From contig NC_083379.1 of NCBI RefSeq assembly GCF_031755915.1, positions 5,033,501 through 5,097,500 of the forward strand: a stretch of 64,000 bases of DNA, read 5' to 3'. Numbering within the stretch: the first letter of the stretch is position 1; every line of letters starts with the position of its first letter. Source of the DNA: Ziziphus jujuba. Its lineage: Eukaryota > Streptophyta > Magnoliopsida > Rosales > Rhamnaceae. The translations under genes were made by a program, and so were the position numbers. Positions 5,788-62,042 of this stretch are shown one piece after another. The notes under the pieces are model-generated. The model searched no databases, was not told the DNA's origin, and worked only from the letters and a program-made list of their open reading frames with translations.

Positions 5788-7188
5788 TTAACAATCTGCC
5801 AAAAGAACCCTCTTATTATTCACCACAATAAAATAGTTGCCACTGCCATCCCTTGTCCTAGTCTTTATCTTTTTCTTCATCTTTTTATTATGATTCCTAA
5901 TCTCAATTGCCAAAATTCGAACTCGAACTCGTCTTTTGATTTTTGTTTTCTTCGATCCATCTGCGGCAATTGGTAACAAGCTCAGTCGGCAGGTATGCAC
6001 CTTTGAGTCCATTGTAATGGTTTGAAGACAATTGAGAGGTTGTTGGGTAACCGTGTCATAGAGAAACAGCTGAGCAACATTATCATCTAACGAGTCAGTT
6101 TGAGCCAAAAATATTTTGGTTTCGCTCCAAAATCCCAGGACATGTTGAATGCCATGAAGGGGTCCAATAGTGAATAGCTTAGTCCATGAATCTTTATTAC
6201 CGTATTCACCTAATTCCCATATATCAAAACAACTTGTTGTTCTATTATCATCCCTATTCCAATGTCCATGTTGATTAACAACCAGAGCAAGGGAGTCATT
6301 GAGAAGCAGAGGATAAGGACAATGGAGGTAATAATAATAGGGAAATTGATAAGAATAAGTAGGAATAATATCATCAGGAAAAGGGGTGGTCAGAATCACC
6401 TCATTTGTGACGTCAAACGAGACAATTACATCCCTGCCATTAGGGCTGACAAGGCGGCTGAATCCTGGCCAGTGACAAAATCCATCGGCGTATACCATGT
6501 CAACTCCATGTGAAATAATCCCAGAAGATTGAATGATTTTCCAAATTTTCTTCTTGTAGCTGTAGATCTCAATCTCCGTTTTAAACGAATAGCACTTGTC
6601 GCTGAGAACGATGAAGGGCCTGTACTCATTATTTTTGGAATCGAACCCACATCCATAATTAGTCATATATAAATCATCTTCCTCCCCATCACTATCACTT
6701 GAATTCCTATAATGATCATAAGTTGGAACATCCTTGACATCTCCAGTTGCAGGGTTCCACAAGGCCAACTGTCCGGCAAACGAAACAAGTAGGACACCGT
6801 CACAGCAACAGCAGCAGCACCGTGCGGGTGTGGGTCTGATGTGGATAACTGTTTTGACTGTTGCATCATCATCATCATCATCCTCATCATCTTCGTAAGA
6901 AACGGAAACTACTCGAGTTCCTTTAAATGGGATGGAGATGAACATATAAGGATCCCTGTCACCGTCGAGAAGGGAGTATTTGGCGATGAAGTCGGAGCTG
7001 TTGATTAGGGAATGCAATGACTTGCACACCCTCTTCATTTTTATCACATCCACCACCGGCAACCTCATCAGAATTTCTATCACCAAGTCTTCCGTCAGAT
7101 CATATACATTAACAAAAGATTCATTTCTTGATGATGAAGATTCAGATGATAATGATTCCCCAAATTCATGATTCATCATTGTCATCAC
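5788..7188 (-). CDS. F-box protein, SLF-like (F-box 1)
   Basis: Intact intronless gene for 466 residues. The F-box lies at about residues 27-70 (LTEDLVIEILMRLPVVDVIK, then a VCKSLHSLI core) and would bind SKP1 in an SCF ubiquitin ligase. An F-box-associated substrate-binding region follows at about 115-400, with LALWNPATGD, a GCGFDSKNNEYRPF block and EIEIYSYKKKIWK. Oddities are an Asp-rich run at 99-108 from a CAT/CTT-type repeat, six consecutive Cys at 124-129 from a GCA-type repeat, and a Lys/Arg-rich tail at about 405-445. The length is somewhat above the usual 370-400 residues of S-locus F-box proteins. The start is the first of several clustered Met codons, and Met4, Met5 or a later one is possible. 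It is a near twin of 34404-35807, and an RNase T2 gene lies 11.8 kb away on the same strand. A role as a pollen S-determinant is inference. A generic FBA-type F-box protein is the alternative. Confidence 0.9.
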   Translation of the reverse strand: MMTMMNHEFGESLSSESSSSRNESFVNVYDLTEDLVIEILMRLPVVDVIKMKRVCKSLHSLINSSDFIAKYSLLDGDRDPYMFISIPFKGTRVVSVSYEDDEDDDDDDATVKTVIHIRPTPARCCCCCCDGVLLVSFAGQLALWNPATGDVKDVPTYDHYRNSSDSDGEEDDLYMTNYGCGFDSKNNEYRPFIVLSDKCYSFKTEIEIYSYKKKIWKIIQSSGIISHGVDMVYADGFCHWPGFSRLVSPNGRDVIVSFDVTNEVILTTPFPDDIIPTYSYQFPYYYYLHCPYPLLLNDSLALVVNQHGHWNRDDNRTTSCFDIWELGEYGNKDSWTKLFTIGPLHGIQHVLGFWSETKIFLAQTDSLDDNVAQLFLYDTVTQQPLNCLQTITMDSKVHTCRLSLLPIAADGSKKTKIKRRVRVRILAIEIRNHNKKMKKKIKTRTRDGSGNYFIVVNNKRVLLADC

Positions 7189-8300
7189 GATAGATGATTC
7201 ATACGATATTACGATAATCTAATCTAAACTCTATAGGAAAAGATGAAGGAGAAGAAAGAAGAGAATACTATGGATAGATGGATGGATGGAGTTTCAGGCA
7301 TAAGCTTTAGGGATTTATTTGTAGGCTGGCCTTATTGCCCCTATCGGATATAAACAGTAACGCCACACCACCCATTATTTATTCTTGCAGATACAGACTC
7401 ACAGTAGTGTAGAATTATTTGTTTGCTGAGCTGTAAACTTTAGCTTACTCTGTAAGCTTAGCCTAGTCAATCAATACATAAAACAACTGTTTCTCTCTGT
7501 ATTCCAGTCTACTTTCTACATTAGTAAATTCCATTCCAATCATTGGAAAATTTGCGAAAGAATTGATGAAAACTTTTACATTTAAGTTTCAATTGAATAA
7601 TTAAATTCAATATTTTAAGTATAAAGTTATTTATATTTAATTAATAGTTATATAAATAATTTTATTTTTGATCATTATTGATGATAATCAACCGTTTATA
7701 TGATAAATTTTAATTGATAATATTTAATTTTTATTTTTATATTAAAATTTTAAAAATAAACTATTTAAATTGTCATTCGATATATAAATTATATTGATAT
7801 AGGATTGGCGTTAGGCAAAAATTTGAAAAAAACTTTGAGTCGATGTTTAAAACAAATATATCAATGAGTAATATTATTTTAATTAAAACAAAAGCATCTA
7901 AACCTTTTTGAAAATTTATAAATTACTCAATTAATAATAATTTATTAAATAATATGTTAAATCCAAATTTAAAAATAAATATATATTTTACCCTAAAATA
8001 TAAGTTAAAAAATATACCACTCACAGTATTAATATTTACTCATTCTTGCTTTATGACAGAGTCAACTGCAAATTCTATCATATACCTAACATATCCCATG
8101 AATATTATTTAAATATCAAATAAATATTTAAGGATATTGGAATACTCTAAATGATTTAGAATTACTTTTACTACTTCGAGTTCTCAAAATTGGACTCTAA
8201 AGGAGTCCAACTATCCCGTGATTCCAATTGGTCTATTGCCTAAAATTTGGGGCTTTTCTACTTATATTCAATTTCATGAAATTAAATATTTCATTAACCT
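7189..8300. other. Upstream region of F-box 1, AT-rich
   Basis: The first 200 bases upstream of the F-box start are nearly identical to copy 2, and divergence grows beyond that. A TATA-like GTTTATATCC (minus strand) lies about 160 bp upstream of the start, but copy 2 reads GTTTTTATCC there. The rest is AT-rich with no coding signal. Confidence 0.5.
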
Positions 8301-9350
8301 CTATTAATCATTGAAACCTAAACACAATAAAAATTTCTAGGAAAAACTTCCAACAACAACCAGTTTTATGGTAAGTACTAAAATCAGCTCTAAAATAGTT
8401 ATATTTTAAATATTCATCTATAATTAGCAAACTATATACCAAATAAAAGCTTGTAAGATAAGAATTGACAATAGTTAGCTCGTTAACTAAACTCACCGCC
8501 AATGGCTGAAAAATGGCCAAAAGATTTCGAACAAATTTAAACTATCATATCTCTTAAACAACTTAGAATTTGAAAATATAGAGGTTATATTTGGAATTAG
8601 AGGGTCCAAAATAGGGGGATAGAGGTATAGCTTGGACTGGGTTGGTTGGTAAGTAACCAAATCATGAAAAAATCAGTTTGTGTTGTTGCTAGCTTCGAAT
8701 GCCCGATCTAGGAGTGTTCGGGAACTGCTCACCATGATTTTCTGGTTGCAGGTAGGAAATTCCATGGGCTTTGCCCAAGTTCGATGTGTGTGGTGTATGG
8801 ATGGTCGAAAAGCAGCTAATTCGGCCCCGCAGGGGGGGGGGGGGGTGTAGGGGGAGGAGAAAAGAAAAGACAAAGAAAAAGAAATTGACACACGACCTCG
8901 TCAAATTGTGACATGTGACATCTATAAATTTGTGATATATGGCATTTGTAAAAGATATTCTCAAATATTCTTTTACACGTTTTTTAATAAAACTATTATA
9001 AAAAGTCGATCTTAGAAAAATAATTTCAACTTTACAAATCTATCATTTTTCAACTGTAAATATAAATTAATTGTGCCATCAGTTTACAAACTTGTGTTAA
9101 CGAGCAATATACGAATGGTACATAAGTCAAAGCCATAATTTATACATATAAAAAGTCAACCTTGACCTTGCTTGATTAGTCTGAACTTCACTTTGATCTT
9201 ACCATAACTTTCTGATCTCAACTTCAATTTTATCGTGTTTCTAGTTTATGAGATAATGAGTGAAACTCTAGCATGCTGAAAAGTCGACTGTAGAATTTAC
9301 TTGGTCAACTCTTATCAAACTTGATAAAAGAGTGAAAATTTTCCCTACAC
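8301..9350 (-). mobile_element. Old, decayed LTR-like sequence
   Basis: Read on the minus strand, parts follow the order of motifs in the 5' half of the window's gypsy LTRs: a TTGACTTTTT stretch, an AACTTTGTAAACTGATGGCAC-like counterpart of the LTR's GACTAGTGGCAC, and further out a counterpart of the LTR's GGGTTGGTCG block. Identity is low and no termini were found. The same stretch occurs in copy 2 (36700-37414 plus 40319-40830) and in part at 16542-17040. A 14-base G run lies at 8832-8845. Confidence 0.4.
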
Positions 9351-10215
9351 TTTGGTATGGGTTACAAAAAGTTTCTAAATAGGCTACATACTATAGTTCA
9401 CAATAAATTGATCACCTTATTGTTAGGTGTACTTTAGTGTGTCAATGGTAGATTCTGCAAAGCTTAGAATTGCCCCTATTAAAAGTTATATATAATATTT
9501 AGGATGAAATGATCTCTTTTTTTCATTTTTCATTTTTAATTTTTTTTAATTTTTTTAATGAAGCTTTTTTGAATACAATAAACTATAGTCTTGTTCATAT
9601 AAGATATTGTGAAGTATTTTTAAATATAATAAACTATAATCTTGTTCATATGACATACTGTGTATCATATGTACCATGTTGTACAGAGAAAGAACAGTCT
9701 GCACACTCTTACCAAAACAACAAAAAAGCCAATCTGTATACAGTGCTTAATCTCGTTGACTAACAATATTGATAAATTATTTAATCGATGAGATTAAGAC
9801 CAATAAGATGTGATGACTTTAAAGACCAATAACATGTCGAAACTGGGATGTTTTTGAAGCTCTAAACCAAATATAATGAAAAAAAAAATAATAATAAAAA
9901 GAACTTGTCTGTCTAAGGCCCACGTTATAAACAGCAACCACATTTTCAACGGATTTTGCAGCCTCTTTTTATATTAAGTAATTTTCATTAATGTATGAAA
10001 CCAAGCAACCAGCTGTTAAATATTTTACGTAGATTAACCATAACTATATAATTTACTTATAAGATATATTTATATTAGTATTGGATTATTTATTAATTTA
10101 TATAATAGGTTCTTTGAATTTGCTCTTTATAGTATTTTAGTTTGACTATTGAGCTAAAGGATTAGCTCTTTCTAAAACATCAATTGGCTTATCTAGTTTT
10201 TTTTTTTTTTAATTA
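9351..10215. other. AT-rich end of duplication unit, no gene
   Basis: Matches 40850-41407 and 50212-50530 in copy 2. Position about 9874 is the paralogous empty site for the CACTA insertion at 41408, as the flanks join here without the element. No coding segment was recognised. Confidence 0.6.
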
Positions 10216-11349
10216 TTATTTTGTGTATATTTAAAACTACGGATAAGCCATATGACTTGTATATGATTTCTGTCTTTAAAAAGTTGAAGGATTATTAGTA
10301 TTATAAGTCAGAGTGATTTGGGATTATCTTGGATCTAATTCGGAAACTTGAAAGAAAGGGTTAGAAAATATTGTGTTCATTAGCCATTGGTATTACGATT
10401 GTTTTATTTTATTTTGTTTTCTATTTTGCAAGACCATAGATAAAATATTTTAATAGCTGTTTTTGGAAGTTAATGATTCTGATCAATCGTACTTATTCAA
10501 TTAATTAATATATTGTGTAAGATCTATAGGTAATTTTTTTTTTTTTGCTTAAAAGATTAATTATAGTGCTAAACATATTGAATGATGATTTGATTATATA
10601 TATGAGCATGTTATATTAAATTATTATTACCGCACTAACTCCAACTAGCTATCTCAATGTCACTTCAAAAGATCGTGATGTTATATAAGCCTAACCAATG
10701 CAAGTTTAATCGATAGCCCTCCAATTGTGTCGCAAAAGAAAAATTAAGAAAAAGAAAAACCTAGAGCCAAAAAAAAGAGAAGAATCTGTTTTCTCGGCAA
10801 AATTCCTTATTCTTTCATTAACGAATATAAGCCATTTATACAAGCTAATTGCGTCTCGAACGACATTACAATTTGAAATTTGCAATGCTAAATTTTGGCA
10901 TAGTTATAGCATTTTAGCTTTTCAATGGTACATCGTAAAATTTGACAATTTATTTTTTGGTATGAAATACTATATATAATAAAGTTTGTGTGGCCCACCA
11001 TCATTTAATACTTTTTTATTTTAATTTGATACTTAAATTATTTTAATTTTGATTTTGAGTTGATAAAAGTGGGTCTCATTATCATTTTTTAATATTTATG
11101 ACATGGTAATGCTATTTTTTAGCATCTGCCATTGGAAAGTTAATGCTAAGAATTGATATTGGTATTAATATTTATCATTGGAGAGTTTATGCCAATTCCA
11201 AATTTTAGAAATGTCAATGGCAAAATGGCATTTGCCATTGAGGTGTTCTAAAAGCAATTTAGAGATTGCTTTAGACCCAACTACCTACAAACACGATATA
11301 ATAGAATATGCTAGCTCAACACTAATAAAACAACTTAACAGCTAATTAC
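10216..11349. other. AT-rich intergenic, possible MITE
   Basis: No gene is seen. Between about 10840 and 11250 there are inverted similar motifs (AATGCTAAATTTTGGCATAG at the left, and AAATTTGGAATTGGCATA on the reverse strand at the right) that may mark a decayed MITE. Termini and target duplication could not be fixed. Confidence 0.35.
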
Positions 11350-12170
11350 AAAAGTATCTTCAATGACTTCGTTTATTGTTAGATTTTTTTTACCACATCA
11401 GAAAAATAGACATTTACTTTAAAAAAAAAAAAAAACTCTTCAATAGATCTGTTTAAGTATTTTATCAAGCTAATGTAATAAGACCAAAAAAAAAAAAAGG
11501 TTTTGGCAAATATTATCAAGCTTTTTTACAAGCAAAATTTTCCCTAAAAAGTTAATTTTTTCGAAAAAGAAAAAACTTAACAAAATATATGCAATTAATT
11601 AATAAATATAAATAAACTTTTGACAACACAATTGTAGAACAATTTTAAAATTGACTGCACATTTATGCTATCTAAATTTAGACGATACCAATTTTTATAA
11701 GACAACAATTCACATTCACTATTGAAAATATGCTAAGAATATCTCTAATGATTTTGTCTTTTGGAACTTATGTGGTCAAAGGTTTGGAAGATGTTGATGC
11801 ATAAGTGGTATAATATTTATCAATAGACAATATCTTTTTAAAATTCTTCTTTAATGGATCCTATATAAAATTTTAAATAGAATGAGTTGGCATATTGAGA
11901 GAGGAGAGAAAAGAGACTACGAATTGATAAAAAGAGAGCAGAAAGGAGAGAGACAAAGACTGTATTTATGACTCACACTGTTTAACTAACATTTGACAAG
12001 TAGAGGGTCTGTTAAACATTTTCTATTTTTTTTAATGTCATCTTAGCTTGATAGAAGTCTTGCACAATACCATTAGAGATACTTTTTTAAAAAATAGTCT
12101 GTTAGTATAATGTGGCAAAACATTTTTTATATAAATGTACCCTATTAATAGATCATTGAAGGTGCTCTAT
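11350..12170. mobile_element. MITE-like element, outer
   Basis: The ends carry inverted similar sequences: AGTATCTTCAATGACTT at the left, and GAGCACCTTCAATGATC on the reverse strand at the right. The inside is non-coding and AT-rich and contains a second inverted pair (next entry). The family is uncertain and no clean target duplication was found. Confidence 0.4.
11737..12085. mobile_element. MITE-like element nested in the outer one
   Basis: Terminal inverted motifs GAATATCTCTAATGATTTTG at the left and GTATCTCTAATGGTATTG on the reverse strand at the right bound about 350 bp of non-coding DNA. Their spacing and similarity suggest a small non-autonomous DNA transposon. Confidence 0.45.
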
Positions 12171-13502: not shown

Positions 13503-13547
<45 letters not shown>

Positions 13548-17040: not shown

Positions 17041-17149
17041 ATATTACATAACTAATGTTTAGCAAAAAAAATGATAGCTAACAAGTATTAATGGGAAAAA
17101 AGTTATAAATTTTAAATTTCTTTAATTATTTTAGATTGTTTAGATAATT

Positions 17150-18174
17150 TTTTAGTTTGAAAAATATAGTTTCAAATTGTATATTTAATAATTAAGTCAT
17201 GATCATATAGCTCTTTTTCAAAAATTGTTGTGAAAAATTCACCGAAAATATTTGTTAAAAAAATAAACATGAAAAAACAAAAAACCTCAAAGACAAATAG
17301 TAACAGATATTGATTTTTTTATTAATTACTATCTATATATTTTATCAAGGGTTTAGTCAAAATTTTTATCTGAAAAAAAATAATAATAATAACTTTGTTA
17401 CTAGGAGGTGTCCCTTGAAAATTTTACTGGATCCGCCGTGGTAGGCAAATGCATTATTGTAAAAGTTGGAGGCAATTTATATTCATATTGTCAAGAGGAT
17501 TAGGTGGGAAATCAAAATACTTCATTCTGGTGTGTAAATTCCCATCGGAAAAAATAAAAAGAGTATGTATATATATGTATATATATATTAGTCTTTGTAG
17601 AAAACTGGCATTTAAATTTGGAGGAGAACTTGTTCATTTGCGGATGTATTAACTATTAATTAATAAACCATGCAATTCTGAAAGTTGAAGGGAATTTACA
17701 TCTTGTCAAGAGAATTAGGTGGGAAATCAATTAACATACTTAATTTGATGTGCGAATTCCCATTGGGAAAATTGCATGTGACGAAGTTGGTAAAGTTATG
17801 TAAACAAAAAGAATTTTTTCCATAGTTTGAGATGTGACAACTTTATTGTTCATCAAGTTACTATCTTTTTAAAGTTTATCTTGTTTCTCATTATGATTAA
17901 GTTAGAGAAAAAATAATAGAAATTAAAATTTGTATTATATAATTTTAGAGCTGCAATGAAATATATATACATACATAGACAGCTACAACCCACTTCTATT
18001 TTCTCATATATTAGACAAAAAGTAAACGCAGCCCAGTGTTGAAATCTGCGTTCTCCTCATAGCATGACTACCCTACTTTTGCTTTTCCATTTTTATTGTT
18101 TTTATCATTTAGGTTTATTTTTTTTTTATTTTTTTTTATCTTTTATCAATTTTATTTTGTATATTTTTGCAAAT

Positions 18175-18232
<58 letters not shown>

Positions 18233-18375
18233 AAAGAATTCTTCTATGAGACCGTCTTATTCATTTTTTTATTAGAATTTTATTTATTATTCTCTAAATT
18301 ATTAGTTTAGGGTTGAGATACAAAATTATTGTTAGGTTTTAAATGAGCCCAAAAAGTGTTTACTTTGTCCTACAA
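17150..18375. repeat. RNase-flanking repeat A, copy 1
   Basis: Aligns with 21515-23535 (copy 2), which additionally holds a TRIM at 21851-22529 and a small internal repeat near 22950-23040. It spans a pair of internal repeats about 245 bp apart (TTAGGTGGGAAATCAA at about 17498 and 17715). It contains no gene. Together with B1 it brackets the RNase. Confidence 0.8.
18177..18232. repeat. (AC)n(AT)n microsatellite
   Basis: Compound dinucleotide repeat inside repeat A. The paralogous tract in A2 is at about 23342-23388 with different unit numbers. Confidence 0.9.
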
Positions 18376-18939
18376 TTTGAGGTTTCTCACTCCCTCATTA
18401 GTTTTTGGAAAAAATTATTGTAATGAGGAAAAAAAAAAACTCAATTTAATATATTATGGATAATGTTAAACTTTTTATAGCTTCTATAAATATTATATAA
18501 GTTTAGATAATGTAACTATTATCATAAATAATAATTAAAATTCTATTTAATATATTATGTATAATGTAATTATTTAATATAATTACAAGAATAATAATAA
18601 AAAATTAATTTAATCTATTTTAGAAAACCATAAATAATCAACTTTGTTTATATTTTTCTTGTTAATTAAATTTTTGTAATATAGTATTATATGATTCTGA
18701 CCAAATATTATACAATATCAATAAAAGATAATGTAATATATAATAATACATTACAAACTAGCACAATACAGATTAATATAGTTTATGTGCCTAAAAGCAC
18801 AAGAAAAAGGCCCAACAAGGGGCTTACAAAGAGAACGAAGCAACGGTTTCCTCTGTTATTTAGTGTAATACAGTTATGCATAAAATATTGAACTATCTCA
18901 GTACAAACTAATACAACATAAATTAATACACAACACCGA
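18376..18939. other. 3' flank of RNase with duplicated tail fragment
   Basis: AT-rich DNA downstream of the RNase stop. Bases about 18768-18872 repeat, in the same orientation, the last coding part and 3' end of the RNase (about 18930-19007): both hold an AATATAGTTT block, a GGCCCAAC stretch with GGGGCTT and a CCTCTGTTATT end. The copy is not in an open frame. No other gene is seen. Confidence 0.6.
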
Positions 18940-19808
18940 TCAATATAGTTTTGCATGCCTAAGAGCGCGAAAGAAGGCCCAACTAGGGGCTTTCAATTCC
19001 TCTGTTATTCCAGCACGAGGAGGAGGAGGAGAAGGAGGAGAAGGAGAAGGAGAGAGTGCAGTAGTCTCTACATAAAAATGTGCTCCACAACTCCGTTTAT
19101 CCGGACAATCCTTGAAAGTGTTTAAATCGGATTCGAGACAAAACGTTACCTCGACCAGTAACCTAAAATTTTCTGGCTCAGAAATATCCTTGCAAGACAA
19201 TGCAGGAGTAAAGTTCGTTATCTGTTTGAGCTGGTTAAGAATATCGGCAGTCAAGTACTTTTTTTCTTTAATCAAGAGTTCACTCAGAGCCTTCTGTATC
19301 ACTGGAGTACGAAATAGATCGATTCCTTTCTGGAAATACTCAACTTGAGTACCAGAACCGAGGTGGAAATACCGTCCATGTTTGACCCACTCGTGGCGCC
19401 ATAAGTACTCATTTGGGTTAGGGCGGTTCTGTAAACCTGGCCAATCTTTTTCGAGGTCTTTCAAGAGTTGACCTTGCAACTGAAAAACAAAAACTAAACT
19501 ATTTAAGCATTTAAAAATGAAGTAATTAACAAAAAAATATAAAAATTACAAAACTAACTCACAAGATTTATATCGAAAGTTCTTGTTATTGGTGTGGACA
19601 ATTCATTCAGCCAGAGGCCGTGGATTGTAAACTTGCCAGCAGGCAGATCAGAACGACAGTCCTGCTCTGGACCTGTGGAGCAGAAATTTCGTGGGTAGCA
19701 TACCACAAACTTGTCAATTTTCTGTTTTCCTTCTATTTGATCAGCGAATATCCATTGGCAGGAAGAGCAGGAGGCTACCAAAATGATGAGAAATGCAATG
19801 ATTCCCAT
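18940..19808 (-). CDS. Secreted RNase T2, S-RNase-like, two exons
   Basis: Exon 1 is 19563-19808 (82 codons) and exon 2 is 19479 down to 18940, joined in phase 0 for 261 residues. The enzyme would cleave single-stranded RNA by transphosphorylation and be secreted. A signal peptide occupies about residues 1-22. CAS I is FTIHGLW at 60-66 (catalytic His63) and CAS II is HEWVKHG at 111-117 (His111, Glu112, His116). The single intron lies between them, the place usual for S-RNases. Departures are Leu67 where family members have Pro after HGLW, and Tyr119 where a disulfide Cys is expected. After the last Cys-rich block (about residue 213) comes a Pro/Ser tract at 225-236 and a 25-residue tail that lengthen it beyond the usual 200-230 residues. 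Acidic and basic residues are about balanced, whereas S-RNases are usually basic. It could be an S-RNase, an S-like RNase or a decaying allele. Neighbouring F-box genes favour the first, but do not prove it. Confidence 0.88.
19017..19057. repeat. GGA/GAA trinucleotide-type tract in RNase exon 2
   Basis: An imperfect GGA/GAA repeat. On the coding (minus) strand it gives the Pro/Ser run at residues about 225-236. Length variation here would change the protein without breaking the frame. Confidence 0.8.
19480..19562 (-). other. RNase intron (83 bp)
   Basis: On the minus strand the donor is CTT|GTGAGT and the acceptor is TTTTTCAG|TTGCAAGG, preceded by a T-rich tract. Splicing joins codon 82 to codon 83 without a frame change. 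Without splicing, two codons and a TAG stop follow codon 82. Confidence 0.85.
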
Positions 19809-19897
19809 CTTAAAATGATTTCTTTAATGCCTACTGTGATCTGGCTTTGCTTTTTCATCCTCATCCCTACTCATATATATATATATATATATATGAT

Positions 19898-19905
19898 ATT
19901 TTATA
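19898..19905 (-). promoter_or_regulatory. TATA box candidate of RNase gene
   Basis: TATAAAAT on the minus strand lies about 90 bp upstream of the RNase ATG, a typical distance for a short 5' leader. A (TA)n microsatellite at about 19873-19894 sits between it and the ATG and could vary in length. Confidence 0.5.
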
Positions 19906-20424
19906 CACATATTCAGTAATACGACGTAGTTTGGAATTTAGACCTGGTCTTGGTCATTCGCGGGCAACTTACATTTAAAACAGACTTGTTTTAAGTTGAA
20001 TTTCAGCCAAAAAAAAAAAAAAAAAAAAAAAAGAATACTTGTTTTAAGTTGACATGATGGAGTAGAGCTTGTCCTCTATGCATGAATAACACGCTTGACG
20101 AACCCACGTAAGCGCATGCGCGGCCCCACCTCCCTTCCTCAATTATTTTATTTTATTTCATTTTATTTATTTACAATTCTACTTCTTAAATACTAGGGTG
20201 CCCTCTTAAGTTTCTGTATTTTGGCCCTTAAACCCCTCATATTTTCTTTCTCTTTTAGTTTTTTTTTTTAAAAAATATTTTGTTTTATTTGTTTACTATT
20301 CTGCCCCTTAAATACCAAAGTTTAAGTGCCCCCAACGTATTTTGTTCTTTAAATCAATAATTTTTTTCTTAATAAAATTTCATTGTCTTGATTAATTTTT
20401 CTTATTTTAGTTAGTTTTAAAAGA
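19906..20424. other. RNase upstream region, no gene seen
   Basis: AT-rich sequence with an A run at about 20010-20032 and several T-rich tracts. It is not part of the duplicated A or B blocks, so it is unique to the RNase-bearing copy in this window. Confidence 0.55.
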
Positions 20425-21283
20425 TAATTTGGAATTTTTTCAATCACCATGTCTCTGAATGACATGAACGTGACATCTAAATAGTTAAAGTATTTTTGAG
20501 AAAATTGAAATAGGAAAATAAATAAAATTAATTGTGTAAAAATCTAATTATTATCAAACGATTGTATTAAAATTAAAATTGCAGAGAACAAAATAATTTC
20601 AAAATTCTTTTAATGCTTGAAAAAGGACTTAACAAAATGAAATTTTATTAAAATTACTTTTTCAATTTTATTTTTAATCATTTAATGATCATTAAAAAAA
20701 AAAAAAGCTTTCAAATTACAAACATTATAAAGCATTTAATTCTGGCCTTGTCTATTTGTAGAAAACTTGCATATAAAACAAACTTGTTATTTTACGTTCA
20801 AGTAAAAAAGAAAAAAAAGAAAAAAAATTGCGGATGCATTAGTATTATATAGAGGCGGAAAAAAAGACAGCTACTTACCCTCTCTAATTTGTCAAGACGG
20901 ATCCTACTTTTAGAACCATAGCTGATGGAATGGTGGTAACCAAATTCAAAGGCTTTGAAGAAGGCTCCAGCATTACACCGGATATAGTAATAGTGTATAT
21001 ACAGCTACTTCTCTGTCTCATTAGAGATCGCCTCTATTTTGTCATATATCCGTCGAAAAGTAAATCCAACAGTGGTAGCTTTTACTTGGACTCCCCAGGG
21101 TATGGCAGCGCTCTCTGGATCTCTAAGCTTTCTTTTCCTTTTTTCTTGCTTTTTTCATTTCATTATTTAAGTTTTGCTTGTTATTATTTTTTTCTATTTT
21201 TTACCAATTATATATGTGTTTATATATATATATATATTTTTTTTTAAGTCCACATTAGAAAGAATATGTAATTATATGTGTGT

Positions 21284-21314
<31 letters not shown>

Positions 21315-21495: not shown

Positions 21496-21514
21496 ATATA
21501 TATATATATATAAC

Positions 21515-23341
21515 TTTTAAGTTTGAAAAGATAGTTTCAAATTGTTCCAACTATATTTAATAATTTAGTCATTATTATATTGCTTTTTTCAAAAAAATTA
21601 TTGTGAAAAATTCAATGAAAATATTTGTTAAAAAAATCAACATGAAAAAAAAAAAAACTCAAAGACAAATAGTAACAGATATTGTTAATAGTAACAAATA
21701 TTGTTTTTTTTTTATTAATTGCTATTTATGTATTTTATCAACGTTTACTCAAAATTTTTATCTAAAAAAAAAAAAAATAATAATAATAACTTTGTTGCTG
21801 GTTATCGTTGAAAATTTTTCTGGATTTGCCGTGGTACGCAAATGCATTATTGTAACAGCCTAGACCATCCACATGCAATATTTTCTGCTTTGGGCCCTGC
21901 TCCTACGGTTTTGTTAAAATGCATCACACGGAAAAGGTATCCACATCACCTTATAAGGCGTGCTTCGTTGCCCTTTTTAATCAATGTGGGACTTTACAAT
22001 CCATCCCCCTTGGGGTCCAGCGTCCTCGCTAGCACACCAATTCGGGTACTGGCTCTGATACCAACTGTAATAGCCCAGACCATCCGCATGCGATACTGTC
22101 CGCTTTTGGAGCAAGGTGGTGAGCCCAAACCTTCCCCTCACGGGTTTAAATGCGTCTCAATGGGTTAGGAAGCAAAACCGTGAGGGGTAGGATTGGGCTC
22201 ACCATCTAGCTTCCAAAGTGGACAATATCTCAGTTGGGTCTGGAAGGCCCAGGCCAGTGGGACTGGCAGGTGAAGGGGTGGGACACCTAACCACTGAGAG
22301 GTCTGGGCTGTTATAGTTGGTATCAGAGCTAGTACCAGGATTTGTGTGCCAGCGAGGATGCTGGGTCCCAAGGGGGTGGATTGTGAAGTCTCACATCGGT
22401 TGGAAAGGGGACCAAAGCACGCCTTATAAGGTGGTGTGGATATCTTTCTCGTGTGACATGTTTTGATAAAACCGTGTGGGTGGAGCCCAAAGCGGACAAT
22501 ATCATATGCGAGTGGTCTGGGCTGTTACAATTATTGTAAAAGTTGGAGACAATTTATATCCATATTGTCAAGAGGATTAGGTGGGAAATCAAAATACGTC
22601 ATTCTGTTGTGTAAATTTCCATCGGGAAAAATAAGAAGAGTATGTGTATATATATATATATATATTAGTCTTTGTAGAAAACTGGCATAAACAAAATTTT
22701 TATTATTTTAAATTTGGAGGAGAACTTGTTCACGCGGATTTATTAACTATTAATTAATAAACCATGTAATTCTGAAAGTTGAAGAGAATTTACATCTTAT
22801 CAATAGAATTAGGTGGGAAATCAATTAACATACTTCATTTGATGTGCGAATTCCCATTGGGAAATTGCATGTGACGAAGTTGGTAAAGTTATGTAAACAA
22901 AAAGAATTTTTTCCATAGTTTGAGAAATGACAACTTTATTGTTCATCAAGTTACTATCTTTTTAAAATTTATCTTGTTTTTCGTTATGATTAAATCAAGT
23001 TACTATCTTTTTAAAATTTACCTTGTTTCTCATTATGATTAAGTTAGAGAAAAAATAATAGAAATTAAAATTTGTATTATATAATTTTAGAGATGCAATG
23101 AAATATATATACATACATAGAGAGCTATAACCCACTTCTCTTTCCCATTTTGGTGTTTTGTTAAATCAATTACTTCTATTTTCTCATATATTAGACAAAA
23201 AGTAAACGCAGCTCAATGTTCACATTTGCGTTCTCCTCATGGCATCATTGCCCTACTTTTGCTTTTCCATTTTTATTGTTTTTATCATTTAATTTATTTT
23301 TTTTTTGAGTCTTTTATCAATTTTATTTTGTATATTTTTGC

Positions 23342-23388
<47 letters not shown>

Positions 23389-23535
23389 CAAAGAATTCTT
23401 CTATGAGGATGTCTTAATGATTTTTTTATTAGAATTTTACTTATTATTCTCTGAACTAATTCAAGGGTTGAGATACAAAATTATTTTAGATTTTAAATGA
23501 ACTCAAACAGTGTTTACTTTATCCTTCTACAATTT
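21515..23535. repeat. RNase-flanking repeat A, copy 2
   Basis: Second copy of 17150-18375. It is interrupted by the TRIM at 21851-22529 and has an extra local repeat of about 48 bp near 22950-23040. The compound AC/AT microsatellite is at 23342-23388. No RNase sequence follows it, although copy 1 is followed by the RNase. Confidence 0.8.
21851..22529. mobile_element. Palindromic TRIM element
   Basis: Small LTR element with a perfect 5-bp target duplication ATTAT (21846-21850 and 22530-22534). The left half is minus-oriented: a short LTR of about 145 bp, a GGGGG-type polypurine tract and a TGGTATCAGAGC primer-binding site, all in reverse complement. The right half is plus-oriented: the same primer-binding site at about 22320, a polypurine AAGGGGGTGG, and an LTR at 22384-22529. 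The two halves meet head to head. The paralogous site near 17450 reads GCATTATTGTAAAAG without insertion. Confidence 0.85.
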
Positions 23536-23781
23536 TAATATATTACTATATTCATTTAAACCAACAAAATATCTTTTAGTCTCAACCTTTGAATCAATTA
23601 AAGGACTTATGATAAAGGACCTAATAATTTTTCCATCAACATGTCCTAATGAAAATTGACTGTATATATAATATAGGAGAATTCTTCTACGAAAACGTCT
23701 AATTGTTTTCCATCAGCACTTCACTTATCAGTATATATGTATATATATATATATATATTTAAGTTGATATTAAGAAGAATG
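23536..23781. other. A2-B2 spacer, no RNase
   Basis: Only about 250 AT-rich bases separate A2 from B2, where copy 1 has about 2 kb including the RNase gene. No RNase remnant is visible here. Confidence 0.6.
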
Positions 23782-24148
23782 TATTTGGAATTTTTTCAAT
23801 CACCATGTCTTTGAATGACATGAAAGTGACATCTAAAAAGTTTGAGTATTTTTGAGAAAATTGAAATAGGAAAATAAATAAAATTAATTGTGTAAAAATC
23901 TAACTATTATTAAACAGTTGTATTAAAACTGTAGAGAACAAAATAATTTCATTTAGTGATCATTAGAAAAAAAGCTTTCAAATTACAAACATTAGAAAGC
24001 ATTTAATTCTGGCCTTGTCTATTTGTAGAAAACTTGCATATAAAATAAACTTGTTATTTTAAGTTCAAGTGAAAAAATAAAAAAAAGAAAAACAATTGCG
24101 GATGCATTAATATTATATAAAGGTGGAAAAAAAGACAGCTACTTACCC

Positions 24149-28558: not shown

Positions 28559-28593
<35 letters not shown>

Positions 28594-28720
28594 CCACCAA
28601 AAATAAAGACAACTTGGTTTCTATACTCTAAGTCATACAATCCACATTTCAACAACTAAAAAATATACATATATGAGTTTATGTTGTTAAAAAACAATAA
28701 ATTTTAAGATATACTTAAAT
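28223..28720. other. AT-rich sequence, no gene seen
   Basis: Low-complexity DNA with an (AAC)n microsatellite at about 28560-28594. Some words near 28440-28510 (CACAATTTTACAGCACTTCA) resemble the minus-strand LTR end region, so part may be an old LTR remnant. Confidence 0.45.
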
Positions 28721-29141: not shown

Positions 29142-29160
29142 GGCCCCAAGGGGGGTGAAT

Positions 29161-29542: not shown

Positions 29543-30314
29543 CCTCTGGCCTTATTGCTGGTTGTATACCTATAGATGACTGATATCATGGGATCATATA
29601 GTGATATATCGAGTGTAGTTCCACTATAAGTGTGCGGTTTACGTGTTATATTTAACATTTTTAGTTATATTTTTATATTATTATTATTACTATCATTACT
29701 ATTATTATTATTATCATGATCATCATTGTCAATTGCATAATTGTTGTATTTGTTTGAATTGATGACTTTCTGAATTTAGAAGTACGCACGTAATGTTATA
29801 AAGTAGTGGAAAGGTTTGGACAGTACCGGTAATAAAAAAATTCAAATTAGGCTTTGGTAGATATTTTAGCCTTTGTGCAGGTGTATTAGTTTTTGGATAG
29901 GTATTATGTGAGATCCCACATCGGTTGAAAAGGGGAACGAAGCATGCCTTATAAGAGGGTGTGGATACCTTTCCTTTGCGACGCGTTTTGACAAAATCGT
30001 ACGGGCTGGACCCAAAGCGGACAATATCGCATGCAGGTGGACTGGGCTGTTACATAGTTAGTCTTCGAGGTAGGTGTATCAGCTTTGGATAGGTGTATGA
30101 GCTTCCAGACAGAAGTATTAGCGTACTAGCAATTTACTTAAATCATTTCAGAGGCTCTATACATAGTCATATTTACGTATATGTGTATGAAGAAAATAGG
30201 AATTTATGTTGATTCTGAATAGCAGTAGTATTATCAGAATTATTGTCCAGACCTTAACTATTCAATTTAAAGTATATTTCTATATATGTATTTTAATATA
30301 GTTTATTTTATTTA
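29543..30314 (-). other. Inverted left end of duplication unit copy 2
   Basis: Reverse complement of the sequence that starts copy 1: bases 29543-29750 read backward match 1912-2070 (for example GATATCATGGGATCATA against TATGATCCCATGATATC). The inverted block begins with CCTCT and the upright unit resumes after AGAGG at 30626-30630. TRIM LTRs in opposite orientation bound both sides. No gene is seen. Confidence 0.75.
29907..30054 (+). mobile_element. Solo TRIM LTR
   Basis: About 148 bp from TGTGAGATCCCACATCGG to GGGCTGTTACA, the same LTR as the neighbouring TRIM. The flanks TATTA and TAGTT are only weakly alike, so the target duplication is not clear. Confidence 0.75.
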
Positions 30315-30625
30315 TGTGACAGTCCAGACCACCCGCATGCAAATATTGTCCGTTTTGGACCTGGGAAATCCTCTTACAACCCAGCCATCGCGGGTTTAAA
30401 ATGCGTCTCAGTGGTTAGGAGGAATCCTCTTCCCCCGCCAGTCCCACTGGCTCGGGCCTCCCAAGTCCAACCGAGATATTGTTCGCTTTGGAAGCTAGAT
30501 GGTGAGCCTAATCCTACCCTTCACGGTTTTACTTTCCCTCATGGGAATGCGTCTACAAGGGAAAGGTATCTACACGCTTATAAGCCATGCTTCGTTTTCC
30601 TTTCCAACCGATGTGGTATCTCACA
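30315..30625 (-). mobile_element. Longer TRIM LTR, minus orientation
   Basis: Starts TGTGACAGTCCAGACC and ends GTGGTATCTCACA on the plus strand. It contains the short LTR's ends plus about 160 bp of extra middle sequence also seen in the centre of the palindromic TRIM at 22067-22319. The adjoining AGAGG (30626-30630) pairs with CCTCT after 29542 as a target duplication split by inversion. Confidence 0.75.
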
Positions 30626-32031
30626 AGAGGTGGTTGCCTATATGGCCAGCTAACCCTCTGATCTCGTAGGCGGTAAAAATAAGATACTTAATCGTTCATG
30701 AGCCTAATCGAGTCATTACCCTGGTATGGCATAGTACACTTGACACATAATCGTTACAATGATAATGTTATATTAGTTTAATTATAGGAATTGTGGATAT
30801 GGAATGTTCAACGTCACTATGACATGCTATACTATTAGGTTGTTTGGCAACCATGGACATAATCAATATACCAAGTTGTTCAAAGGAAACAATATAAAGA
30901 CTCGTAAATTCATATGAAAATTGATTCTACTTAAATTTACCATTGTATCACCCAAGATTTTCTCGCCACAAATAGAAAAAGGGTTGGCCAGAGACCGTTC
31001 AAATCAAGTGAACTGGATAACACTAGCAGCTAGCATCCAAACACGGTTTTTGACCCCCAAACGCCGATCCCGGTGCATCCTCTGACCAACTGGCCAGAAA
31101 TATTGCAGTTGGAGTCACCTTGATAATAGAGATCTTGTGCTTTCCATTCACAAAAGCAGGCAAAGTTGATAAATTCATAGAATTGGCAAATGTTATATTA
31201 TAGTAGTCTACTTGGGAATTTGATTTCCCTACTTCTTACATCTCCAAGACTTTCCTTGGCGGAAAGTTAAAGCAACCATTATACATATTTATGTAAGTGT
31301 TTATTTGAAAGGAAACCATTATAAGGATCCCGAAACCTACACAACCTGACGTGGTCTGTCCAAGACACAAGATCATCAAAACAGTTGCCGAACACGAGAA
31401 GGTCTAAAATGGGCTGGGTTTTCAAGACCACCGAATTGGTTTGGGTCTCTATGAGCTGCACCTTCTGAACCGGTCATGGATCTGGGAACTTCTGGTCTTT
31501 TTGGGCATATCCAGGTCTCCATTCCCTTCCTGGAGTCTAGGCCCATTTGGGATATTAAGAGATTTGAGAATAAAGTTGAAATATGTTGTTTTATTTTTTT
31601 ATAATTTTATTGAAATATTATTGAAAATTTTATTCAAAAATAAAAAAAAGTCAGTTATAATCTATAAAATTTGTCTTTTTCAATTAAGACATAAACATTT
31701 AAATTAAGTTAAAGAGCAAACAAAACAAAATGTCTTAATGAATTAAGATAAGTTTGTTTTAAAACTGAAGTGAGAAAAAAAAAAAAAATCCCATAGCATA
31801 TGTATTTTATTTTCCGTAATAATAGTATATGTATTCTTTACTTCTAGTAACTAGTAATGGTGAGAAAATATTATTTACTAGTAGACAAATACAAACCAAA
31901 GAGAAAATTTCAACACTAGAATAGACAAACTTTTATACTTCAGGAAACCAAAATATAAATCTTGCAATCGTAATTACATATATTTAAATTTTAAAAAAAT
32001 TATTAATTGTGTTGGTAGTAAATTTGTGTAC
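30626..32031. other. Left part of unit copy 2, no gene
   Basis: Aligns with 2067-3488 of copy 1. The TATA-like box is changed to CACAAATAG at about 30967. Small indels are frequent, and no coding segment was recognised. Confidence 0.6.
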
Positions 32032-33320
32032 AGTGATGAATTGACTCGCAACTACCTCAATGGGTCACTTCCAACAGAATGGACTAAAATGAAGTACTTG
32101 CAACAGAATGTAAGCACATTCTTCCATACAAACTGTATATCTAATCTTTACATTAATATACCATATGCAGCTCTCGTACTGTCAAAACTTTTTTGCACAG
32201 TTTTAACATTTCTATTGATATTTTCTGCTGCGATTTTTCCTACAATAACTCTAATTACTTTGTCATCAAGTTGCACAGAAGACAAGTTAGAATAATTGTT
32301 TGGATGATTGGCTTACTTTACGTTTAACTTTTTTTGGACCTAAATTAGATTATTTTCTTGAAATTTAACCCTTTCAGTGGCAATCAAATCAACAAGTATC
32401 GAAGTTCCACCTTGAAGAACCAGTAAGACCATTCTCATACTTCATTAAAGTGCCCAATAATTGTTATTTCTTTGTCATTTTAAGCAGAAACAGACTTCTT
32501 ACATGCAAAGAGACACAAACACTCAGCTGTCCATGTATGTATATATCTTCTTAATTCTCTAAACTATTTCAAGTGAAGTGAAATTAGAATTATGGTTGGT
32601 TCAAAAAGGATGGATTTGGTTTAGAGATTTGATAAGTTCATCTCTGCAGCTTATAAGCAATCAATTCATATAAGTCGTGGGGGGTGATGATGGGAAAATT
32701 GCAATTAATGCTAAAAGGAGCTTTTCATGTAAAGGTGACATGGGAGAAAGATATGGTGCTATATTGGAAGTCAATGGGGATTTAGCAGGATAGGAGACTT
32801 CATGGATGATGATGAATCTGATACAGAATCCAAATATCTGGTTAAAATATACTTCAGAGGGAAATTTTGGGGACTTGGCCGCTCTCTGCACTACAGCACA
32901 TGGATCTCAATTCCTTCTCTCAGATATTATGCTTTTTGTCTTGACAATGGGAATTACTATGCCAAACTCCATTTCACCGATATCATATTTGCTGACAATA
33001 TATCATATAGCAGACTTGGGAGACGCATATTTGATATTTACATTCAGGGTAATTGCTTACTGTACAATCCTGCTCGATAATAATAGGGGTATATATGGAT
33101 TTTCTGAAGTTTTTATATAATTTGCACGGAAAGATAGAAAGGAGGATTTCAATATAAAAGAGGAAGCCAATGGAGCCGGTGAACCCCATGAAGAATTCTT
33201 TAATGACGTCAGTGTTACGGACCATAACTTGGAGATCCGCTTGTATTGAGTTGGGAAATGGACTACTTTCATCCCCTGAAGATGGTCTCCTGGTTATGGT
33301 CCTCTCGTCTCTGCCATAGT
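32032..33320 (+). pseudogene. LRR-malectin receptor-like kinase fragment, copy 2
   Basis: Same exon remnants as 3489-4830. The LRR exon is at 32036-32109 (RNYLNGSLPTEWTKM, GTAAGC donor). The malectin exon at about 32760-33050 reads YYAFCLDNGNYYAKLHF through SRLGRRIFDIYIQ in one frame, better preserved than copy 1. The next malectin exon, at about 33127-33320, has a TGA replacing the Trp of the LEIRLYW motif. An upstream TAG (about 32790) and a frame change before the YYAFCLD block also break it. No kinase domain is present. It is presumably non-functional. Confidence 0.75.
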
Positions 33321-34403
33321 AAGTAGTAGGTTTACATTCTTTCACAGTATTTTGAGTCGCCATAATGGCATAAAACAGTTTAGAAACTTGAACTTACTCT
33401 AAATAAAAGAAACCAAATGAAGGTAGAAACAATAAAAATTTTGTATGTTTGTTTCCTGTTCGAAATAACATGTTAGCTATTCCCGGATATGTCAAAGTTC
33501 AGTCATAGGAATTAGGATACATAAAATGCACGCACATAAGCTTTCTGTTTGTTCTAAATATCTTTTGTCTCGTACTTTCTCTTTGAGGCACATATCATTA
33601 TATATTTTGGAAAGGTCATACTTATTAGTGTAAAACTACCGAGGAAACAGGAATAAGTTTCTGTTATTTCTACATTCTTGATGTCCTGCTTTTCCAATTT
33701 CCTTAGGGGGTGAATGGGGGATTTTTCGGTGGCAAATGAACCTCTCATTTATACCAATTATTTTAATTTTTCCATCTGATACTGAAGCATGCATATGGTT
33801 CCTTCTTTCCAGGTTCCAAATCCCATTGTGAAGGTGAGAAATCTTAGACATCATTTCTTGTTTTCTATGTAAGTAAATACTGTCTTTATGTTCTCATGTT
33901 CTATACAGAACAATCAGAACCCCATTAAAAGAAGAAGAAGAAGAAGAAGAAGAAGAAGAAGAAGAAGAAGAGAAGTAGAACACGTGATGTGGTTGATGTG
34001 GTCACTTCGATTTCATGCCTAATTTTTCTGGTAATCATTCATCATTTGGAGACGCCGTTATGGGGATAAATATACTAGAGCAAGAGGTGAGGGATTCATA
34101 AATACTCTATTTGTAATCATTCATTAGTACGCCGTTTTGGGGATATTCATGATGGTCTAATGTAACTGTAAATAATACCGAGGGTGAGAGATAATATAAA
34201 TAAACAACTACATTAAAAAAAACAAAATAATTTTTAATTTAACAGGTGCTTGCTGAAAATATATTATACACGAGTATGGAATAAATGGCAGGGACTCGGT
34301 AACGTCGGGCGAGGGAGGGACTTGAGGGGGTCAAGGGTGCTAATTATTGGCTTTAGGCAGGATGGTGGAATATGCTTATTGTATGGGTCAGTAGCTGCAG
34401 GAA
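33321..34403. other. Intergenic of unit copy 2, no gene
   Basis: Aligns with 4831-5787. It has small insertions relative to copy 1 near 33480 and 33815, and an expanded GAA tract (next entry). Confidence 0.6.
33931..33973. repeat. (GAA)n microsatellite
   Basis: About 14 GAA units. The paralogous tract near 5344 has only about 4-5 units. Confidence 0.9.
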
Positions 34404-35807
34404 TTAACAATCTGCCAAAAGAACCCTCTTATTATTCACCACAATAAAATAGTTGCCCCTGCCATCACCTGTCCTAGTCTTTATCTTTTTCTTCATCTTT
34501 TTATTATGATTCCTAATCTCAATTGCCAGAATTCGAACTCGAACTCGTCTTTTGATTTTTGTTTTCTTCGATCCATCTGCGGCAATGGGTAACAAGCTCA
34601 GTCGGCAGGTATGCACATTTGAGTCCATTGTAATGGTTTGAAGACAATTGAGTGGTTGTTGGGTAACCGTGTCATAGAGAAACAGCTGAGCAACATTATC
34701 ATCTAACGAGTCAGTTTGAGCCAAAAATATTTTGGTTTCGCTCCAAAATCCCAGGACATGTTGAATACCATTAAGGGGACCAATAGTGAATAGCTTAACC
34801 CATGAATCTTTATTACCGTATTCACCTAATACCCATATATCAAAACAACTTGTTGTTCTATTACCATCTCTATTCCAATGTCCATGTTGATTAACAACGA
34901 GAGCCAGGGAGTCGTTGAGAAGCAGAGGATAAGGACAATGGAGGTAATAATAATAGGGAAATTGATAAGAATAAGTAGGAATAATATCATCAGGAAAAGG
35001 GGTGGTCAGAATCACCTCATTTGTGACGTCAAACGAAACAATTACATCCCTGCCATTAGGGCCGACAAGGCGGCTGAATCCTGGCCAGTGGCAAAATCCA
35101 TTGGCATATACCATGTCAACTTCATGTGAAATAATCTCGGAAGATAGAATGATTTTCCAAATTTTCTTCTTGTAGCTGTAGATCTCAATCTCCGTTTTAA
35201 ACGAATAGCACTTGTCGCTGAGAACGATGAAGGGCCTGTACTCATTATTTTTGGAATCGAACCCACATCCATAATTAGTCACATATAAATCATCTTCCTC
35301 CCCATCACTATCACTTGAATTCCTATAATGATCATAAGTTGGAACATCCTTGACATCTCCAGTTGCAGGGTTCCACAAGGCCAAGTGTCCACGATAATTT
35401 TTGAAGCCGAAAAACGAAACAAGTAGGACACCGTCACAGCAACAGCAGCAGAACCGTGTGGGTGTGGGTCTGATGTGGATAACTGTTTTGACTGTTGCAT
35501 CATCATCATCATCTTCGTAAGAAACGGAAACTACGCGAGTTCCTTTAAATGGGATGGAGATGAACATATAAGGATCCCTGTCACCGTCGAGGAGGGAGTA
35601 TTTGGCGATGAAGTAGGAGCTGTTGATTAAGGAATACAATGACTTGCACACCCTCTTCAGTTTTATCACATCCACCACCGGCAACCTCATCAGAATTTCT
35701 ATGACCAAGTCTTCTGTCAGATCATATACATTAACAAAAGAATCACTTCTTGATGATGAAGATTCAGATGATAATGATTCCCCAAACTCATGATTCATCG
35801 TCATCAC
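34404..35807 (-). CDS. F-box protein, SLF-like (F-box 2)
   Basis: Intact intronless gene for 467 residues, about 95% identical to F-box 1 with roughly 20 substitutions. The F-box is at about 26-69 (LPVVDVIKLKRVCKSLYS), with an F-box-associated region after it and a Lys/Arg-rich tail near the end. Relative to F-box 1 it has one fewer Met at the start, four fewer acidic residues in the Asp run, five instead of six consecutive Cys, and a six-residue insertion (FGFKNYRGH for AGQ) just before LALWNPATGD. Several changes sit in the presumed substrate-binding half (Q/L, G/E twice, E/V, T/V, H/N). It lies 14.6 kb from the RNase on the opposite side from F-box 1. Both copies staying open argues for selection on the protein, and a pollen S-function is inferred from context only. 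Confidence 0.9.
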   Translation of the reverse strand: MMTMNHEFGESLSSESSSSRSDSFVNVYDLTEDLVIEILMRLPVVDVIKLKRVCKSLYSLINSSYFIAKYSLLDGDRDPYMFISIPFKGTRVVSVSYEDDDDDATVKTVIHIRPTPTRFCCCCCDGVLLVSFFGFKNYRGHLALWNPATGDVKDVPTYDHYRNSSDSDGEEDDLYVTNYGCGFDSKNNEYRPFIVLSDKCYSFKTEIEIYSYKKKIWKIILSSEIISHEVDMVYANGFCHWPGFSRLVGPNGRDVIVSFDVTNEVILTTPFPDDIIPTYSYQFPYYYYLHCPYPLLLNDSLALVVNQHGHWNRDGNRTTSCFDIWVLGEYGNKDSWVKLFTIGPLNGIQHVLGFWSETKIFLAQTDSLDDNVAQLFLYDTVTQQPLNCLQTITMDSNVHTCRLSLLPIAADGSKKTKIKRRVRVRILAIEIRNHNKKMKKKIKTRTGDGRGNYFIVVNNKRVLLADC

Positions 35808-60356: not shown

Positions 60357-60371
60357 AGTGGTAGGGCGCTC

Positions 60372-62004: not shown

Positions 62005-62042
62005 GCGATAACTGCCTCTCCTTTGAAATCTGCCTCGTAGGC

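What the first reader, a model, noticed from the sequence alone, without database searches (positions are those of the whole stretch)
5788..35807. S-locus-like arrangement: RNase T2 between two duplicated F-box genes
The only three intact genes are two FBA-type F-box genes and a single-intron secreted RNase T2, all on the minus strand, in DNA full of nested retrotransposons and local duplications. S-RNase/SLF self-incompatibility loci have this composition, where the RNase is the pistil factor and several F-box genes form the pollen recognition set. The gene identities are seen in the sequence. The S-function is inference.
Basis: partly seen in the sequence, partly recalled or inferred. Interest (0 to 1): 0.85.

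Follow-up and report, generated by a model that had tools for sequence, protein, structure and literature searches.

The report
Piece of the jujube self-incompatibility locus
This stretch of jujube (Ziziphus) DNA holds one secreted RNA-cutting enzyme gene between two near-identical F-box genes and most likely belongs to the already proposed locus by which jujube flowers reject their own pollen, although this enzyme copy shows unusual changes and may not be the working one.

Summary
In detail: an RNase T2 gene (19808-18940, minus, one 83-bp intron, 261 aa) lies between two F-box genes (5788-7185 and 34404-35804, minus, 95% identical proteins) that sit in a ~6.8-kb segmental duplication. The nearest proteins are Ziziphus jujuba: F-box 2 equals FEM48_Zijuj01G0045800 at 412 of 412 aligned residues, F-box 1 is 98.7% FEM48_Zijuj01G0053800, and the RNase is 92-95% FEM48_Zijuj01G0045600. 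Whether this RNase is the working pistil factor is open. For: single intron, off class I in the best tree, active site kept. Against: mature pI 7.7 (known S-RNases 8.10-9.73), Leu for the CAS I proline, a run-on C-terminus, only 14/257 differences to its var. spinosa counterpart. All seven Ziziphus RNases seen lack a cysteine pair that 109 of 110 other relatives examined keep. I read it as a haplotype segment of the known candidate S-locus, with a structurally odd RNase lineage. Expression, allelism and linkage could not be tested.

The parts
5788..7185 (-). F-box gene 1 (465 aa; F-box plus F-box-associated domain; basic C-terminal tail)
   Evidence: 6 differences of 464 aligned to P0006 FEM48_Zijuj01G0053800
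34404..35804 (-). F-box gene 2 (466 aa), segmental duplicate of gene 1
   Evidence: 0 differences of 412 aligned to P0008 FEM48_Zijuj01G0045800, whose model lacks 54 residues
19563..19808 (-). RNase T2 exon 1: hydrophobic start (signal-peptide-like), CAS I (FTIHGLWL)
19480..19562 (-). single RNase intron, 83 bp, GT-AG, phase 0, between CAS I and CAS II
18940..19479 (-). RNase T2 exon 2: CAS II (HEWVKHGRY), proline-rich tail and extended C-terminus
18703..18860 (-). second copy of the RNase 3' end; it keeps an in-frame stop (ITEETVASFSL*), while relatives P0003 to P0005 end in VASF
   Evidence: 104 of 124 aligned bases identical to 19009-18883
2057..8825 (.). left copy of the F-box segmental duplication
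30626..37360 (.). right copy of the F-box segmental duplication
17141..20880 (.). RNase neighbourhood, copy A (holds the RNase gene)
21507..24148 (.). RNase neighbourhood, copy B: both flanks present, RNase gene missing

Best explanation
The window is part of the proposed gametophytic self-incompatibility (S) locus of jujube, Ziziphus jujuba (wild or cultivated), in a haplotype or assembly that differs from the var. spinosa reference. Shown here: an intact, secreted-type T2 RNase of a Ziziphus-only clade and two duplicated F-box genes kept under selection for protein sequence. Inferred: in this locus type the RNase is made in the style and enters pollen tubes, F-box proteins in pollen mark non-self RNases for destruction through an SCF ubiquitin ligase, and self RNase survives and stops the tube. 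Within that frame this RNase copy is either one S-allele or a linked, partly relaxed relative of the S-RNase; I hold these about equally likely.
For: All five hits of the first RNase search were Z. jujuba, two of them deposited as S-RNase and one named S-F11-like. Of nine F-box hits the first seven are Z. jujuba (five var. spinosa at 75-93%, then 43 and 39%). RNase and F-box genes sit close together twice by gene number in var. spinosa: 0045600/0045800 and 0053400/0053500/0053800. Literature for the locus: PMC5179053, PMC5516771 and PMC8774079 (passages). One phase-0 intron between the CAS motifs; PMC5598434 section 15 gives one intron at position 5 for most class III and almost all S-RNases. 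Class I separated 100/100, and Ziziphus with Maleae and Prunus S-RNases 93/69, not starred. Active-site His of CAS I and Lys/His of CAS II present (their roles recalled). T2 fold predicted for the 95% identical P0001 at mean pLDDT 84, matching RNase MC1, pear S3-RNase and SF11-RNase. F-box dN/dS 0.34.
Against: Mature pI 7.73, or 6.58 without the tail, against 8.10-9.73 for 119 known S-RNases (PMC5598434 passage). CAS I Pro is Leu in the window and P0001 only; the other 5 Ziziphus and all 110 other relatives examined keep Pro. The protein runs on past the end seen in P0003 to P0005. Only 14 of 257 residues differ from P0001, low for S-alleles. Two related RNases are annotated on one var. spinosa contig, so some may be paralogues. 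The two F-box proteins differ at only 24 of 460 residues. PMC5179053 found none of its four F-box genes flower-specific, and PMC5516771 names one pollen-specific gene that I could not match to these. PMC9940439 puts its one-intron chromosome-1 RNase (242 aa, pI 6.43, the figures of P0003) in its class II. AU does not reject Ziziphus with class I (p 0.38).
Confidence: 0.65

Rival explanations
1. S-locus-linked but non-determinant RNase: the window's RNase is a duplicated, relaxed relative of the true jujube S-RNase (P0002/P0003/P0004/P0005 type), left at the locus and on its way out.
For: CAS I Pro to Leu, run-on end and new tail shared with P0001; P0001 has also lost Cys43; a second RNase neighbourhood in the window has no RNase; two RNases on one var. 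spinosa contig; low divergence from P0001.
Against: The protein is kept in two sequences (window and P0001); the active-site residues are kept; the clade's spread (6 rows: mean path 0.32, max 0.46) is like that of 8 Prunus S-RNases (mean 0.36, max 0.44) in the same tree, so allelism is not excluded.
Confidence: 0.35
2. Relict S-locus in a self-compatible or clonal lineage: all three genes are fossils of a former system, kept by linkage.
For: RNase anomalies listed above; near-identical F-box pair; PMC5179053 reports no flower-specific F-box gene among its four.
Against: Open frames and dN/dS 0.34 (p 0.0005) in the F-box pair; [quoted passage not shown] jujuba.
Confidence: 0.15
3. Chance neighbours: an ordinary defence or stress T2 RNase beside members of the large F-box family.
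For: F-box genes near class I and II RNases are common (PMC5598434 passage); AU test does not reject Ziziphus with class I RNases (p 0.38).
Against: RNase/F-box neighbourship recurs by gene number in var. spinosa; single-intron structure; published flower-specific expression of the chromosome-1 S-RNase candidate.
Confidence: 0.1

Closest known systems
Candidate S-locus of Ziziphus jujuba (PMC5179053; PMC5516771)
   Same: Same species by protein identity, chromosome 1 by the FEM48 gene names, one-intron T2 RNase with F-box genes
   Different: RNase is the window/P0001 type, not the P0003 type that has the figures of the 242-aa chromosome-1 RNase of PMC9940439; match to the Zj.jz gene models not testable here
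Maleae (Malus/Pyrus) S-locus: S-RNase with multiple SFBB genes
   Same: RNase beside related F-box genes in repeat-rich DNA
   Different: Two F-box genes in 64 kb here against 17-21 over 1.35-2.64 Mb (PMC11871771 passage); RNase lacks one cysteine pair and is near neutral
Prunus S-locus: S-RNase with SFB
   Same: Few F-box genes near one RNase; papers placed jujube F-box genes with or near Prunus SFB (passages)
   Different: One RNase intron instead of two; RNase forms its own long-stemmed clade
RNase MC1 and cucurbit MC-like RNases
   Same: Same fold, best Foldseek match
   Different: A clade with Ziziphus has AU p 0.074; the cucurbit proteins examined keep the cysteine pair

Membership tests
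S-RNase (class III T2 RNase, pistil S-determinant) | T2 RNase domain with catalytic His in CAS I and CAS II | tested here: met
   Pfam 8.2e-26; IHGLW and EWVKHG present
S-RNase (class III T2 RNase, pistil S-determinant) | One intron at position 5 (two in Prunus) | tested here: met
   One phase-0 intron between CAS I and CAS II against PMC5598434 section 15; homology of the position judged by eye
S-RNase (class III T2 RNase, pistil S-determinant) | Phylogenetic place in class III, not class I/II | tested here: inconclusive
   37-row tree: off class I at 100/100, with Rosaceae S-RNases 93/69; 61-row tree: split 94/75 and place unresolved; AU with class I p 0.38; class II not sampled; stem length 1.85-2.5
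S-RNase (class III T2 RNase, pistil S-determinant) | Basic protein (pI 8.10-9.73 in 119 S-RNases) | tested here: not met
   7.73 without a 22-residue signal, 6.58 without the tail; range from PMC5598434. It passes the looser cut of 7.5 in PMC4451870 (passage). P0001 8.81; the two deposited Z. jujuba S-RNases 7.05 and 6.23, so the mark fails there too
S-RNase (class III T2 RNase, pistil S-determinant) | Absence of amino-acid pattern 4 | tested here: met
   No match in the window RNase, pattern as given in PMC5179053; P0005, deposited as S-RNase, does match it
S-RNase (class III T2 RNase, pistil S-determinant) | Extreme allelic divergence and pistil-specific expression | not testable with these tools
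   Only one close relative (P0001, 14 of 257 different); no expression data
SLF/SFB (pollen S-determinant F-box) | F-box plus F-box-associated domain, close to a T2 RNase | tested here: met
   11.8 and 14.6 kb from the RNase
SLF/SFB (pollen S-determinant F-box) | Groups with SLF/SFB in a tree; pollen-specific expression | not tested
Functional S-locus | Complete linkage to S phenotype and suppressed recombination | not testable with these tools
   Needs crosses or phased haplotypes; own-genome search did not complete (eleven calls)

The most novel reading that the evidence does not exclude
Rhamnaceae run RNase-based self-incompatibility with a structurally distinct T2 RNase lineage: it has dropped the cysteine pair that flanks the two active-site motifs, is near neutral instead of basic, and carries a proline-rich tail. 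It would be recruited or remodelled separately from the Rosaceae S-RNases and paired with F-box proteins that carry their own basic tail. RNase copies would be gained and lost at the locus, as the emptied second RNase neighbourhood suggests.
Probability: 0.18. Interest if true: 0.7.

Novelty: new member of a known kind. Interest (0 to 1): 0.42.

Why it matters
Jujube breeding suffers from self- and cross-incompatibility (PMC5179053, passage), and in the papers I saw the locus is known only in outline. A continuous stretch with RNase and F-box genes in order gives markers. The shared loss of a cysteine pair in all seven Ziziphus RNases seen gives a structural test of how far an S-RNase can change and still work, and of whether RNase-based self-incompatibility in Rhamnaceae has the same origin as in its sister family Rosaceae.

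Tried and rejected
Considered and set aside: (1) RNase as a pseudogene: not the plain reading, because the frame, splice sites and active-site residues are intact, though relaxation remains a rival. (2) Other F-box copies in the window: tblastn with P0001 to P0014 (nine of them F-box proteins) found F-box matches only at the two known genes; the odd C-terminal end of model P0009 also matched repeat DNA at 2770-3598 and 31340-32123. (3) A remnant of a second RNase: tblastn with the window RNase gave nothing else below E 1.7, and the E 1.7 match is the 3' tandem copy. (4) Class from motifs 1 and 2: not used, because their allowed letters were not seen. (5) F-box tree with SLF/SFB: not possible, as one search returned only 9 proteins, none named SLF or SFB. 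(6) The F-box structure model is weak (mean pLDDT 64) and was not searched against structures. (7) Repeats as evidence for S function: described, not used.

Selection told: one search found 1622 proteins and listed 120. The cysteine count used 116 of the 120, leaving out P0015, P0018 and P0045 (double-domain proteins) and P0093, and added the window RNase: 117 rows, 7 of them Ziziphus and 110 others; a cysteine was accepted within 4 columns for the first position. Trees: 61 rows and 37 rows, chosen by me. Class I labels come from protein names and recall. P0125 was grouped under 'other', fell among class I there, and was relabelled class I, where several long-branched rows were also dropped; so the cleaner split partly reflects choices made. 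In one search the place of Ziziphus among the non-class-I rows was unresolved. In one search Ziziphus with Maleae alone had only 62/33.

Full report
What is there. The window holds one RNase T2 gene and two F-box genes, all on the minus strand. F-box gene 1 is 5788-7185 and F-box gene 2 is 34404-35804. Both match the Pfam F-box and the F-box-associated model TIGR01640 above its cut-off. The RNase was not visible as one frame. Motif scans found CAS I (FTIHGLW) and CAS II (HEWVKHG) in two frames of the minus strand, and reading the DNA gave ATG at 19808, an 83-bp GT-AG intron at 19562-19480 in phase 0, and a stop ending at 18940. The 261-aa product has a hydrophobic start and a T2 domain (8.2e-26). 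Of the 14 ORFs, two are the F-box genes, three are Ty3 pieces and nine have no Pfam match above a cut-off.

Duplications. F-box genes 1 and 2 lie in a segmental duplication, 2057-8825 and 30626-37360. Their proteins differ at 24 of 460 aligned residues, with dS 0.074, dN 0.025 and ratio 0.34 (Fisher p 0.0005), so both have been kept as proteins. The RNase neighbourhood is also duplicated: four stretches within 17141-18378 and 20403-20880 recur within 21507-24148 at 80-93% identity, but the RNase gene is missing from the second copy. The 3' end of the RNase is tandemly duplicated: in the copy in use 18 bp are missing relative to the other and a lysine codon stands where the other has its stop, so the protein runs on to a new end. 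P0001 has the same new end; P0003 to P0005 end in VASF like the second copy, and P0002 ends differently. That the run-on end is the derived state is inferred.

Which organism. The first RNase search returned 5 proteins, all Ziziphus jujuba: P0001 (FEM48_Zijuj01G0045600, 92% over the full length), P0002 (FEM48_Zijuj01G0053400), P0003 (S-F11-like) and two deposited as S-RNase (P0004, P0005). The F-box search returned 9, the first 5 from Z. jujuba var. spinosa. F-box 2 equals FEM48_Zijuj01G0045800 at all 412 aligned residues and F-box 1 differs from FEM48_Zijuj01G0053800 at 6 of 464. The RNase differs from P0001 at 14 of 257, and 8 of those 14 fall in residues 180-188, a patch I cannot explain; gene conversion is a guess. 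In var. spinosa the F-box 1 counterpart has a gene number about 80 steps from the RNase (if numbers run in hundreds), whereas here it is 12 kb away, so haplotype structure or assembly differs.

What the literature says. PMC5179053 (passages read) proposed a jujube S-locus on chromosome 1 at 3.8-4.3 Mb with one flower-specific S-RNase and four F-box genes, none flower-specific. PMC5516771 (passages) found seven F-box candidates on that linkage group and one strongly expressed in pollen. PMC8774079 (passages) counts jujube among species with one type-1 S-locus. PMC9940439 (parts 1 and 2 of 4 read) lists a one-intron chromosome-1 RNase of 242 aa and pI 6.43, the length and pI I get for P0003, and puts it in its class II. 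I found no paper describing this window's gene order or the cysteine loss in the searches, which cover open-licence PubMed Central papers and were read as listings apart from the papers named here. PMC9250077 does not mention Ziziphus.

Class of the RNase. In a 37-row tree the class I enzymes split off at 100/100 and the 7 Ziziphus RNases (100/100) sit with Maleae and Prunus S-RNases at 93/69, which is not starred. Their stem is very long (2.5; 1.85 in the 61-row tree, where the class I side had 94/75 and the place of Ziziphus was unresolved). The AU test does not reject Ziziphus with class I (p 0.38) or with Prunus (p 0.42); with cucurbits p is 0.074. Class II was not sampled. The single intron fits the class III-C pattern of almost all S-RNases outside Prunus (PMC5598434 section 15). 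Mean path among the 6 closest Ziziphus RNases is 0.32, against 0.36 for 8 Prunus and 0.60 for 10 Maleae S-RNases, so the clade as a whole is about as diverse as Prunus S-alleles, but I cannot say which members are alleles.

What is odd. First, a cysteine shortly after CAS I and the cysteine of KHGTC in CAS II are both missing in 7 of 7 Ziziphus RNases and both present in 109 of 110 other relatives examined (of 114 listed); the one exception, P0127 from Rubroshorea, lacks both. That these two form a disulfide in T2 RNases is recalled, and the joint loss fits it. Second, the CAS I proline is leucine in the window and P0001, but proline in the other 5 Ziziphus and all 110 others. Third, mature pI is 7.73 against 8.10-9.73 for 119 S-RNases, though above the looser cut of 7.5 in PMC4451870 (passage). 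The T2 fold is still predicted with confidence for P0001 (mean pLDDT 84) and matches RNase MC1 and the pear and Nicotiana S-RNases.

How it most likely works. By analogy with known S-loci, the secreted RNase enters pollen tubes and destroys RNA unless a pollen F-box protein marks it for the proteasome. Shown here: intact genes, conserved active-site residues, F-box proteins under selection. Inferred: locus identity, expression, recognition. Two F-box proteins with 95% identity would recognise largely the same targets, so other F-box genes outside the window would be needed for non-self recognition, or one of them acts alone as in the single-SFB model of PMC5516771.

Verdict. The step from 'at the S-locus' to 'is the pistil factor' is not made: this RNase is either an S-allele or a relaxed neighbour of it. 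The own-genome search that might have decided it did not complete (eleven calls, listed in Tried and rejected).

Noticed in passing
32739-33077 (+) and 4228-4570 (+): Malectin-domain relic of a receptor kinase in both copies of the F-box duplication; the left copy is broken by frame changes and a stop.
   Followed up: partly
21507-24148: Second RNase neighbourhood with both flanks but no RNase gene; about 220 bp stand where about 2 kb lie in the other copy.
   Followed up: partly
19188-19162 (RNase residues 180-188): 8 of the 14 differences between the window RNase and P0001 fall in 9 neighbouring residues; possibly gene conversion, donor unknown.
   Followed up: no
41930-44158 and 47075-47970: Tandem array with a unit of about 248 bp, interrupted by a 2.9-kb element at 44162-47072 whose relative sits at 37415-40316.
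   Followed up: partly
59445-62588 (-): Ty3-type retrotransposon pieces (gag, protease, reverse transcriptase, RNase H) in separate ORFs.
   Followed up: no
P0019 (protein, Z. jujuba var. spinosa): Gene model that joins what looks by eye like a leucine-rich-repeat receptor fragment to a further Ziziphus RNase T2 (47% to the window RNase), which also lacks the cysteine pair and has Thr for the CAS II lysine.
   Followed up: partly
F-box genes, residues about 410-466: Basic C-terminal tail with very low model confidence, absent from the next relatives P0011 to P0013 but kept in P0006, P0007 and P0008.
   Followed up: partly
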